Shown piece after piece: positions 5,198 to 63,915 of a stretch of 64,000 nucleotides of DNA (its first letter is position 1; each line of letters opens with the position of its first letter). The translations under genes and the position numbers were made by a program. Below the pieces are notes generated by a model. It was given only the letters and a program-made list of their open reading frames with translations, made no database searches and was not told where the DNA came from. The DNA comes from Bacillota bacterium (lineage in GTDB: Bacteria; Bacillota; Desulfotomaculia; Desulfotomaculales; Desulforudaceae), in contig JBFLXL010000004.1 of the NCBI GenBank assembly GCA_040757205.1, forward strand, positions 62,001 to 126,000, in the 5' to 3' direction.

Positions 5198-5611
5198 ATG
5201 AACGCCGGACTAAACCGCCCGCAGGAGGACGAACTCGCCCTCCTGCAGGCCCACACCGAAAAACTAACCTGGTCCTGCCTGCTTTTCCTCCTGCACCGCA
5301 AGCCGGCGCACGGCTACGAGCTGATTCAGTCCTTGAACGAGCTGGGACTGGCAGAAAGCGAGGCGGACCCGGCCACCATTTACCGGAACCTGCGCCGGAT
5401 GGAGGAGGAAGACCTGGTGACCTCCCGCTGGGAGGCCGGGTTGTCAGGCCCCGCCCGCCGGCTTTACCACCTGACCCCGGCGGGTGAGGCGGCCCTGCAC
5501 CTGCTCGCCCACCTGCTGCGGGAGAAGAAAGCGAAAATAGAGGAGTTTCTGGGCCGGTACCGGGAGCTGTTTCCGGACGGACCGGCGGGAAACGGGAAAG
5601 AGGGAGACTGA
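5198..5611 (+). CDS. PadR-family transcriptional regulator
   Basis: A 137-residue winged-helix protein. Residues ~22-100 match PadR, with LLFLLHRKPAHGYELIQSL opening the domain, PATIYRNLRRMEEEDLV as recognition helix and start of wing, and YHLTPAGEAAL closing it. A C-terminal helix (EKKAKIEEFLGRYREL) would dimerise. PadR proteins usually repress neighbouring genes in response to a small ligand. The stop overlaps the ATG of the binding-protein gene by one base, so the two are translationally coupled. The likely ligand is therefore an anion handled by that protein, but this is inference. Confidence 0.87.
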   Translation: MNAGLNRPQEDELALLQAHTEKLTWSCLLFLLHRKPAHGYELIQSLNELGLAESEADPATIYRNLRRMEEEDLVTSRWEAGLSGPARRLYHLTPAGEAALHLLAHLLREKKAKIEEFLGRYRELFPDGPAGNGKEGD

Positions 5612-6438
5612 TGCTGCCCAAACCCGAGCAGTCACTGACCATTCTCCACGCGGGCGCCTTGCGCCATCCGCTCCGGGAGTGCGCGCGCCTCTTCGGGCAG
5701 AAGCACCCGCGGGCCGAGATCCGCCTGGAGGCCGCCGGTTCGCTGGCGTGTGCCCGCCGCCTCCTGGAGGGCCGCCACGCGGACGTCGTCGCCCTGGCCG
5801 ATCCGATGCTCTTCGAAAAGCTGCTGGTGCCCCGGTTGGTCCAGCGTTACTTTGTCTTCGCCATCGACCAGATGGTGATTACTTTCGACGACCTGTCCCG
5901 GCACAGCCGCCACATCAACCCGGACAACTGGATGGACGTCCTGCTGGAGCCGGAGGTGACCTTCGGCCGTTCCGACCACAACCTGGACCCCGCCGGCTAC
6001 CGGACCCTGATGCTGTGGCGGTTGGCCGAGCAGCACTACGGCCGCCCCGGCCTGTTTGGCCGGCTGAACGACAAGTGCCGCCCGGAGTTTATTTACGCTA
6101 AATCGGTCGACCTGACCCCGGCGATCCGGGAAGGGCGCCTGGACTACGGGTTCCAGTACCGGAGTGTCGCCCGGCAGGAGAGCTTGCGTTTCCTGCGCCT
6201 GCCCGAGCGGATCAATTTGTCCAACCCCGCCTATGCCGGCCACTATGCACAGGTGTCGGTGGAGTTGGACAGCCCGCTCACCGGCCTGCGCACAATGTTG
6301 CACGGCGCCCCGGTGGAGTTTGCGGCCGGCTGTACCAAACAGGCCCGCAACCGGGAACTGGCGGAAGCTTTCCTGGAGCTGCTCATCAGCCGCGCCGGTC
6401 AACAAATCCTTGAGGAGTCGGGCCTCGTTCCCTACTAG
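5611..6438 (+). CDS. ModA/WtpA-like substrate-binding protein without signal peptide
   Basis: A 275-residue protein of the type II periplasmic binding fold, closest by motif to molybdate/tungstate binding proteins. The opening strand LTILHAGALRHPLRE is followed by RAEIRLEAAGSLACARRL and ADVVALADP, and the chain ends in a helix-rich LISRAGQQILEESGLVPY like WtpA. Unlike those proteins it has no signal peptide or lipobox, because the fold begins about eight residues from the ATG. It therefore appears cytoplasmic and may act as a sensor or buffer with the coupled PadR protein. No ABC permease or ATPase is adjacent. The stop codon directly abuts that of the convergent TauE gene. Confidence 0.78.
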   Translation: MLPKPEQSLTILHAGALRHPLRECARLFGQKHPRAEIRLEAAGSLACARRLLEGRHADVVALADPMLFEKLLVPRLVQRYFVFAIDQMVITFDDLSRHSRHINPDNWMDVLLEPEVTFGRSDHNLDPAGYRTLMLWRLAEQHYGRPGLFGRLNDKCRPEFIYAKSVDLTPAIREGRLDYGFQYRSVARQESLRFLRLPERINLSNPAYAGHYAQVSVELDSPLTGLRTMLHGAPVEFAAGCTKQARNRELAEAFLELLISRAGQQILEESGLVPY

Positions 6439-7407
6439 CTAGAAGAGGAACTGCACGACGTAGCTTAACCCGGTGAACGTGATGATAAAAGCCAGCAGCC
6501 ACTTGATGACGTTGGACGGGACGAATTTCTGGGTCCTGGCCCCGAGGTACATTCCCACCATGCCGCCGAACCCGAAAAGGACACCGAGCAGCCAGTCCGG
6601 CGCTATCCCCAAGTGAGGGTAAAACGGAGCAACGGCCTGGTAAAACACAACCGCCGTCAAGGACGTGAGAAAGGTGCCCATCAGAGTCGCCCCGGCGATG
6701 GTGTACACCGGCAGGTGAAACATGGCCACGAAGATCGGCGCGATGATCGCCCCGCCGCCGATGCCGTAGATCCCGCCCACAATGCCCACCAGCGCGGAAA
6801 CAGAAATCATGATCACGGGGTTGACCGCAAAAGACTCGCCGTAGAAAGAATATTCCATTCTGGTCAGGCTGAACTGCTTCACCTCGGTCCGGGGCAGAGC
6901 CGCCTTGCCTTCCTCCTGAACGGCCGCCGCCGTTTTGCGGAACTCGCTGACCAGTTCCTGAAACCGGCGTTCCACGGACTTCGCCCCGGCGCCGGGGGCT
7001 TGTTTCTTGATCAGGGATCTCGCCATCACGAGGCCGATATACAAAAGTACCAGTCCGGCGAAGAACTTGAAAGCGGCCGGGTCCGGCAAGTAGTGCACCC
7101 GCGCGAACACCCCCAGGAACACTCCGGGAAGGGTGCCCACAACCACCATCCAGGTCAGGGGCCAGACCATGCGCCCTTCCCGGATGTAGCGGTATACCCC
7201 GCTGGGAATGGCCACAACGTTGAAAAGGTGGTTGGTGGCGCTGACCGCAGGCGTGGTGAATCCGAGCACGCTTACCTGGAGCGGCAGCAGCAGGAAGGCG
7301 CCGGACACGCCGCCCATGCTGCAGACGAAGGCCACCGCGAAACCGGCCAAAAAAGGGATCCACGGTGCCACCTCAATTCCGGCTACCGGGAAGAACACGT
7401 CACCCAC
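6439..7407 (-). CDS. TauE/SafE-family sulfite/organosulfonate exporter-like membrane protein
   Basis: A 322-residue polytopic membrane protein with about eight hydrophobic segments arranged as two TauE/SafE repeats. The repeats are GFAVAFVCSMGGVSGAFLLL near the N-terminus and VGIVGGIYGIGGGAIIAPIF in the second half. A charged cytoplasmic loop of roughly 70 residues separates them. Family members export sulfite, sulfoacetate or related anions, but the substrate here cannot be read from sequence. The GTG at 7407 is too close to AAAGGGG, so the GTG three codons later (7398) is the more likely start. It is a single gene convergent with the binding protein. Confidence 0.85.
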   Translation of the reverse strand: MGDVFFPVAGIEVAPWIPFLAGFAVAFVCSMGGVSGAFLLLPLQVSVLGFTTPAVSATNHLFNVVAIPSGVYRYIREGRMVWPLTWMVVVGTLPGVFLGVFARVHYLPDPAAFKFFAGLVLLYIGLVMARSLIKKQAPGAGAKSVERRFQELVSEFRKTAAAVQEEGKAALPRTEVKQFSLTRMEYSFYGESFAVNPVIMISVSALVGIVGGIYGIGGGAIIAPIFVAMFHLPVYTIAGATLMGTFLTSLTAVVFYQAVAPFYPHLGIAPDWLLGVLFGFGGMVGMYLGARTQKFVPSNVIKWLLAFIITFTGLSYVVQFLF

Positions 7408-7728
7408 CCCCTTTACCGAGTGGAGCTTTTCAGTGTCAAAACAACACGTCTTTCCACTAACTGGTCTTTTGACTAGTCCACGACGTCAGGCCGTCAGACG
7501 GCTTGACCGGCTAGACGCCCGGCGTGGAAACAAAAGCCCGGCGAAGCAAGCCCGTGGCCGGCCAAAATCCCCCCGTTTTTCTACTATGTGCATGTTGCAT
7601 ATAGCATAGCATGGAGATGGAATAAAGGCAATGGCTTTGTTACGAAAAACACAATTGACACCGATTGTGCGCCGCCTCGGCCGGCGGCCCCGCCCGCACG
7701 GCCGAATCCTGTAGGCGCTGAACCTGCA

Positions 7729-41447: not shown

Positions 41448-41476
41448 TTGACTGTTTGTCCGACAATGATTATTGT
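41448..41476 (+). promoter_or_regulatory. Promoter of the AOR operon
   Basis: TTGACT (41448-41453), a 17-base spacer and TATTGT (41471-41476) lie upstream of AOR. The -10 box is the left end of a palindrome, so the promoter looks regulated. Confidence 0.65.
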
Positions 41477-41495
41477 TTAACTAGTTATAACAATA
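41471..41495. promoter_or_regulatory. 25-bp palindrome over the AOR promoter (likely operator)
   Basis: TATTGTT and AACAATA are perfect arms around TAACTAGTTAT, whose centre AACTAGTT is itself palindromic. It covers the -10 box and the expected transcription start and ends 18 bp before the ATG, a typical repressor position. The regulator is unknown. Confidence 0.65.
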
Positions 41496-63558: not shown

Positions 63559-63915
63559 TGGTGGAGGCGGGGGGAGTTGAACCCACCGTCCGAAAGAATG
63601 ACTACAAGAAGCGGCTACGAGCGTAGGCTGTAGTTTGGGTTTCGCTCCGTTTGGCGCCTACAGCCAGGCTCCGCTGGAGCTATCTCGATGAATTTCCCCG
63701 GGCGCCTCCGAGAATTGGCGCCGGGTGAGTCCGCTTAAATGACACCCCGCTCCCGCTCCGCGGGCTTAAGCGGGTGGGATGCTGGCTGTCTTAAGCAGCC
63801 AGAGCGTAAGATTCGTTCTTGGCGTTTATAGCCTTTGCCACCGTTTAACGGGCTGGCGACAACCCCGGCTCGCTCCCCTTGCCTTCACTTCCCCCGTCGA
63901 AACCACGTCGCCCCC
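63559..63915 (-). ncRNA. ssrA: Transfer-messenger RNA (tmRNA)
   Basis: A 357-nt RNA that rescues stalled ribosomes with SmpB. The ends pair as a tRNA-like acceptor stem (GGGGGCG with CGCCTCC), and ACCA at the 3' end is encoded. GTGGTTTCGACGGGG near the 5' end and GGTTCAACTCCCCCCGCC near the 3' end are standard. The tag frame reads AKNESYALAA and stops at TAA (around 63799-63832), a short tag with the usual ALAA degradation signal. A promoter lies just upstream. In many Firmicutes it sits beside smpB and rnr, but here it is about 63 kb from rnr. Confidence 0.96.

What the first reader, a model, noticed from the sequence alone, without database searches (positions are those of the whole stretch)
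5198..6438. PadR regulator coupled to a signal-less ModA/WtpA-like protein
The genes share one base at stop/start, and the binding-protein fold has no export signal or transporter genes. A cytoplasmic oxyanion-binding protein made together with a repressor could be a two-part sensor of molybdate or tungstate. A tungsten-type AOR operon with a repressor-like palindrome lies in the same window. I know no described system of this form.
Basis: inference. Interest (0 to 1): 0.62.

Follow-up and report, generated by a model that had tools for sequence, protein, structure and literature searches.

The report
Repurposed transport protein as gene-control sensor
Sulfate-reducing bacteria appear to keep a relative of the tungstate/molybdate-catching protein inside the cell, paired with a DNA-binding repressor that controls nearby oxyanion transporter genes through a newly recognised 21-letter control site, so a transport part seems to have been turned into a gene-control sensor.

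Summary
A PadR gene (5198-5611) shares one base with a 275-aa WtpA/ModA-like gene (5611-6438) that has no export signal. It is not a local accident. In 20/20 relatives and 46/46 named genomes, every signal-less homologue has PadR directly upstream. None of 33 canonical, exported WtpA homologues does. The signal-less proteins form one clade (100/99), found in sulfate reducers (Desulfotomaculia, Desulfosporosinus). One MAG encodes the two as a single 417-aa PadR-SBP protein.

A TauE/TSUP permease lies immediately downstream (6439-7407, minus). In relatives the neighbour is TauE, a chromate-type (CHR) or a MOT1 molybdate-type permease (44/47 loci). I found a 21-bp palindrome, CTAwrTGCAnnnTGCAywTAG, before these operons. 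It occurs once in the 2.03-Mb genome, 177 bp upstream of TauE. It also precedes distant TauE, MOT1 and CHR genes in relatives.

Best reading: a cytoplasmic oxyanion sensor (probably molybdate/tungstate) whose PadR partner represses oxyanion permease genes. Ligand, direction of control and PadR-SBP contact are inferred, not shown. New variant of a known kind.

The parts
5198..5611 (+). PadR-family repressor gene, 137 aa; stop codon overlaps the next start by one base
   Evidence: PF03551 E 3.6e-19, 69 bits; directly upstream of the SBP gene in 20/20 relatives and 46/46 named loci, one of them as a fusion
5611..6438 (+). Signal-less (cytoplasmic) WtpA/ModA-like oxyanion-binding protein, 275 aa
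   Evidence: SBP_bac_11 2.5e-41; WtpA-like but below curated cut-offs; PDB 3cij/2onk 1e-52; AF2 pLDDT 88 and Foldseek 3cij E 4.7e-34; no hydrophobic N-terminus; one clade apart from exported WtpA
6439..7407 (-). TauE/SafE (TSUP) permease gene, 322 aa, convergent and directly adjacent; likely regulated target
   Evidence: PF01925 4.3e-38; TauE of this clade (two of them broken) near the pair in 33/47 loci; operator upstream
7584..7604 (.). Predicted PadR operator, 21-bp palindrome CTATGTGCATGTTGCATATAG, 177 bp upstream of the TauE start codon
   Evidence: Only match in the window (expected 0.02) and in the 2.03-Mb genome at up to 3 mismatches; same consensus upstream of module operons and of distal permease genes in relatives

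Best explanation
The pair is a split transcriptional sensor. The WtpA-derived protein stays in the cytoplasm and binds an oxyanion, most likely molybdate or tungstate. Its ligand state is passed to the co-made PadR dimer. PadR binds the palindrome CTAwrTGCAnnnTGCAywTAG and represses genes for secondary oxyanion permeases: TauE/TSUP here; CHR- and MOT1-type in relatives. My committed direction is feedback: ligand-loaded SBP acts as co-repressor, so uptake is shut off when cytosolic oxyanion is sufficient. SHOWN by sequence: conserved linkage, loss of the signal, single clade, a fused frame in one MAG, shared operator motif, motif sites before oxyanion permease genes. INFERRED: ligand identity, PadR-SBP contact, PadR being the protein that binds the palindrome, direction of control, transport direction of TauE. 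The stated confidence is for the sensor/repressor/permease circuit; for Mo/W as ligand about 0.6, for co-repression rather than induction about 0.55.
For: PadR directly upstream of the SBP gene in 20/20 relatives and 46/46 named loci, against 0/33 exported WtpA loci. In-frame PadR-SBP fusion, 417 aa, followed 16 bp later by TauE, with an operator-like site ending 15 bp before its ATG. N-termini: exported WtpA hydropathy peaks 1.8-3.2, module proteins none above 0.6. Module SBPs are one side of a 100/99 branch. TauE, CHR or MOT1 gene near 44/47 pairs. Operator: 39 sites at up to 3 mismatches in 551 kb of module loci, 34 of them in the 4.6% of bases upstream of PadR/TauE; reversed control pattern 1. 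One site in the own genome. Sites before distant targets: TauE 1.09 Mb from PadR-SBP-MOT1 in G079, 1.56 Mb in G055, 1.58 Mb in G039; MOT1 in G042; CHR in G022. The half-sites contain ATGT...ACAT, the PadR-type box (established knowledge). The Asp that bonds tungsten in WtpA (Pf D160, PMC10221389) is kept as D126 in all module proteins except one with a local deletion.
Against: No binding, expression or structural data. The second tungsten ligand (Glu218) maps to Ser165, and the invariant Ser of the HAGS motif is Ala16 in all 47 module proteins, so the ligand may differ (the Glu218 mapping rests partly on remembered numbering, though 22/33 exported WtpA also lack Glu there). The consensus was derived from some of the same upstream regions it was tested on. 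In 15/47 loci no site was found in the defined window, although in several a site lies just outside it. In the window PadR's own promoter has no site. The fusion rests on one low-coverage contig. The module tracks dsrA, which also fits a sulfur oxyanion.
Confidence: 0.72

Rival explanations
1. The same circuit, but the ligand is a sulfur oxyanion (sulfate or sulfite). The module tunes a sulfate/sulfite permease to the flux of dissimilatory sulfate reduction.
For: All 46 module-bearing genomes of 113 Desulfotomaculia have dsrA (two as contig-edge fragments); none of the 36 genomes without dsrA has the module (Fisher p 4e-11, not corrected for kinship). TSUP proteins are the putative sulfate transporters found in all 44 sulfate reducers examined in PMC5840216. 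The pocket differs from exported WtpA at A16 and S165.
Against: The conserved D126 carboxylate should repel a sulfate that cannot expand its coordination (inference). MOT1 is classed as a molybdate transporter (PF16983). The SBP is far closer to WtpA than to sulfate-binding proteins.
Confidence: 0.25
2. Detoxification: the SBP-PadR pair senses excess molybdate/chromate-like oxyanion, and derepression turns on efflux by TauE/CHR.
For: CHR proteins are named chromate efflux transporters (TIGR00937 228.9 bits over the cut-off of 171.7). TauE of Cupriavidus is described as a sulfite exporter (cited in PMC3949148). Molybdate inhibits sulfate reducers (PMC7774982, abstract).
Against: MOT1, in the same predicted regulon, is regarded as an uptake family. 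No other resistance genes are consistently linked.
Confidence: 0.2
3. PadR alone senses its own small hydrophobic ligand, and the SBP is merely co-transcribed with a separate role, such as cytosolic Mo/W buffering.
For: PadR proteins often bind aromatic compounds by themselves (established knowledge). Solo PadR paralogues of this subfamily exist, e.g. next to TauE in G066.
Against: Strict pairing at the clade level, translational overlap, a PadR-SBP fusion, and no other Mo/W metabolism gene in the conserved neighbourhood.
Confidence: 0.12
4. The signal-less SBP is a decayed or mis-started remnant of an exported WtpA.
For: The frame is open for 41 codons upstream.
Against: The upstream extension is hydrophilic and lies inside padR. 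The protein is conserved at about 50% identity across families, with conserved pocket residues and no stops.
Confidence: 0.01

Closest known systems
WtpA/ModA of WtpABC tungstate/molybdate ABC importers (A. fulgidus AF_0094, P. furiosus PF0080)
   Same: Fold, HAG and DPCGYR motifs, metal-bonding Asp kept
   Different: No signal peptide, no WtpBC partner, scores below both WtpA cut-offs, A16 and S165 in the pocket, always paired with PadR
PadR-family repressors (PF03551; nearest NCBIfam model PhaQ repressor TIGR02719, below cut-off)
   Same: Winged-helix PadR domain; predicted palindromic operator with ATGT...ACAT half-sites
   Different: Ligand sensing appears to be delegated to a separate (once fused) binding protein
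ModE-type molybdate regulators
   Same: Function: cytosolic Mo/W-responsive control of oxyanion transporter genes (from established knowledge)
   Different: ModE uses a LysR-type helix-turn-helix fused to molbindin domains; here a PadR wing and an SBP-fold sensor
LacI/LysR-type regulators with periplasmic-binding-protein-like sensor domains
   Same: A binding-protein fold reused as cytoplasmic sensor; weak LysR_substrate hit 9e-4
   Different: Different DNA-binding domain; sensor is a separate polypeptide from the WtpA branch

Membership tests
WtpA tungstate ABC substrate-binding protein | Score above curated NCBIfam cut-offs | tested here: not met
   236.9 against 355 and 215.7 against 242.75; a canonical WtpA from the same bacterial class scores 414.8 and 371.7
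WtpA tungstate ABC substrate-binding protein | Exported: signal peptide or lipoprotein N-terminus | tested here: not met
   12 residues before HAG, hydrophilic extension; exported WtpA peaks 1.8-3.2
WtpA tungstate ABC substrate-binding protein | Linked WtpB permease and WtpC ATPase | tested here: not met
   Neighbours are PadR and TauE/CHR/MOT1; WtpB/WtpC adjoin exported WtpA, e.g. L091
WtpA tungstate ABC substrate-binding protein | Two carboxylates bonding the metal (Asp160 and Glu218 in P. furiosus, PMC10221389) | tested here: inconclusive
   Asp kept as D126; Glu218 position is Ser165, but Ser/Ala also in 22/33 exported WtpA; mapping partly from remembered numbering
WtpA/ModA fold superfamily (PF13531) | Fold and Pfam score | tested here: met
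   142.4 bits against 25; Foldseek 3cij E 4.7e-34, TM 0.78 to open 3k6u
PadR family | PF03551 above gathering score | tested here: met
   69 against 27 bits
PadR family | Binds a palindromic operator upstream of a target | not testable with these tools
   Palindrome conserved at the right places; binding needs experiment
TSUP (TauE/SafE) permease, 6439-7407 | PF01925 above gathering score | tested here: met
   131.7 against 32.6 bits
ModE family | LysR-type HTH plus molbindin domain | tested here: not met
   Neither protein nor the fusion matches such models
Functional oxyanion sensor-repressor | Oxyanion binding by the SBP and ligand-dependent DNA binding | not testable with these tools
   Needs ITC/EMSA

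The most novel reading that the evidence does not exclude
A previously undescribed class of metal-oxyanion regulator: an ABC-importer substrate-binding protein lost its export signal and became the cytosolic sensor subunit of a PadR repressor, giving sulfate reducers a regulon of interchangeable oxyanion permeases (TauE, CHR, MOT1) that would make this TauE clade a molybdate/tungstate permease.
Probability: 0.5. Interest if true: 0.75.

Novelty: new variant of a known kind. Interest (0 to 1): 0.62.

Why it matters
It would show how a transport receptor becomes a transcriptional sensor, and it gives a directly testable operator and regulon. It links three permease families of uncertain substrate (TSUP, CHR, MOT1) to one regulator, which could settle what these permeases carry in Gram-positive sulfate reducers, where molybdate, tungstate and sulfate compete.

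Tried and rejected
AOR regulon: palindrome 41471-41495 does not match the operator and no site lies near the AOR gene, rejected. Riboswitch in the TauE leader: Rfam finds only tmRNA in the window. Spaced PadR box (ATGT-N2..15-ACAT) as a fixed consensus: no single spacing reached the reporting threshold; the GTGCA-N3-TGCAC signal led to the motif. Consensus sigma-70 promoter near the operator: none by scan; a weak TTGCCT-17-TATGCT next to the operator is noted only. AF2 model of the fusion: both domains well predicted but pTM 0.55 and a low-confidence linker, so no information on domain contact. Several 2-mismatch sites (and one 1-mismatch site shared by G028/G084) away from the module sit beside unrelated genes and were treated as chance (G071, G069, G057, G028/G084). 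Literature searches found no description of this pair; the library is partial.

Full report
OBSERVATION. The PadR ORF (5198-5611) and the binding-protein ORF (5611-6438) share one base of TGATG. PadR passes PF03551 (69 against 27 bits). The 275-aa protein passes SBP_bac_11 (142 bits). It resembles WtpA but scores below both curated WtpA cut-offs, and its nearest solved relatives are ModA/WtpA of A. fulgidus (1e-52). Only 12 residues precede the HAG motif. The 41-codon open extension lies inside padR and is hydrophilic.

CONSERVATION. In 60 related genomes, homologues fall into two sorts: about 50% identical with short frames, and about 40% identical with longer, exported frames. All 20 loci of the first sort that I fetched have PadR directly upstream on the same strand. 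A scan of 84,980 species genomes gave 46 named loci of the first sort, all with PadR, and 33 exported WtpA loci, none with PadR or this TauE. Exported N-termini have hydropathy peaks of 1.8-3.2; module proteins do not exceed 0.6. In a tree of 80 proteins the two sorts separate at a 100/99 branch. In 398 genomes drawn across the phylum the module appeared only in the window's class and in one further genus; the named hits suggest that genus is Desulfosporosinus (inference). In a Thermoanaerobacteraceae MAG (L077) the two genes are one 417-aa frame. Its closest relative among the fetched loci (L035) has two genes. The contig has coverage of about 3, so a frameshift error is not excluded.

THIRD GENE. 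A TauE/SafE permease gene (6439-7407, minus) ends at the base next to the pair. A TauE of this clade lies within about 6 kb in 33 of 47 loci (two are broken copies). Nine Desulfosporosinus loci have a CHR permease instead. Three loci have a MOT1 molybdate-type permease, one of them together with CHR. In all, 44/47 loci carry one of the three.

OPERATOR. Searching upstream regions for gapped palindromes gave GTGCA-N3-TGCAC in front of both padR and tauE. This was refined to CTAwrTGCAnnnTGCAywTAG. In 551 kb of module loci there are 39 sites at up to 3 mismatches. Of these, 34 lie in the 4.6% of bases just upstream of PadR or TauE; the reversed control pattern gives 1. Because the consensus came from some of those regions, the independent tests matter more. 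(a) The window's whole genome has one site, 7584-7604, 177 bp upstream of the TauE start. (b) In G079 the pair (with MOT1) and TauE are 1.09 Mb apart, and both have a site. G055 (1.56 Mb apart) also has a site at each; in G039 (1.58 Mb apart) the distant TauE has one. (c) An extra site in G042 lies 3 bp from the start of a MOT1 gene. A perfect extra site in G022 lies between a WtpC-like ATPase gene and a CHR gene. (d) By my reading, at least 33 of 46 module genomes have a site next to the pair or TauE. Among module-less genomes with this TauE I found such sites next to TauE only in three: two hold fragments of a decayed pair (G006, G078), and G004 is a sister of G006.

POCKET. An AlphaFold2 model (pLDDT 88) matches ModA/WtpA structures best (3cij E 4.7e-34; TM 0.78 to the open form 3k6u). 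WtpA bonds tungsten through Asp160 and Glu218 in P. furiosus, and mutation of Asp160 abolishes selectivity (PMC10221389). The Asp is kept (D126) in every module protein but one with a small deletion. The Glu position is Ser165, as it is Ser or Ala in 22/33 exported WtpA. The Ser of HAGS is Ala16 in 47/47 module proteins against Ser in 33/33 exported ones. I read this as a Mo/W-type site with altered, perhaps lower, affinity suited to sensing. That is inference, and the Glu mapping partly uses remembered A. fulgidus numbering.

PHYSIOLOGY. Across 113 Desulfotomaculia genomes all 46 module carriers have dsrA (two as contig-edge fragments), and none of the 36 without dsrA has the module. Kinship inflates the significance, but families f14 and f5 contain within-family contrasts. 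This ties the module to sulfate reduction, not to tungsten enzymes in general. It is compatible with either a sulfur oxyanion or Mo/W control under sulfate competition. TSUP proteins are the putative sulfate transporters found in all 44 sulfate reducers surveyed (PMC5840216). The window's genome also has a TupA tungstate-binding gene without any operator.

AOR LINK. The AT-rich palindrome at 41471-41495 does not resemble the operator, and no site lies near it.

MECHANISM. PadR, a dimeric winged-helix repressor family, probably binds the palindrome, and the SBP supplies ligand sensing. I favour co-repression of uptake permeases by ligand-loaded SBP. Derepression of efflux is the chief functional rival, and a sulfur oxyanion is the chief ligand rival.

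KNOWN KINDS. It works like ModE (cytosolic oxyanion control of transport genes), but neither protein has ModE domains. It descends from WtpA but fails WtpA's export, partner and score criteria. I found no description of this pair in the held literature.

Noticed in passing
L045 5363-5587, L046 5369-5590, L065 5370-5600, L072 5311-5601: Small 73-96 aa ORFs of two families lie just upstream of padR, several of them between tauE and padR; the one tested has no Pfam match. Possibly a further part of the module.
   Followed up: partly
G006:C17:35733-36260 and G078:C51:7598-8402: Decayed copies of the PadR-SBP pair, while TauE with its operator stays intact (in G006 beside the decayed pair, in G078 on another contig); an example of regulator loss with the target kept.
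   Followed up: partly
L035 5073-5459 (-), L072 4756 (-), L082 4957 (-), G066:C505:24906-25208: Divergent or solo PadR paralogues of the same subfamily sit beside the module or beside TauE without an SBP; they may compete for the same operator.
   Followed up: no
L190 2033-2053: Perfect operator palindrome between a WtpC-like ABC ATPase gene and a CHR permease gene in Desulfoscipio geothermicus, on a different contig from its two PadR-SBP pairs.
   Followed up: yes
   Followed up: partly
window 63559-63915 (-): tmRNA gene, the only Rfam gathering-level match in the window.
   Followed up: no
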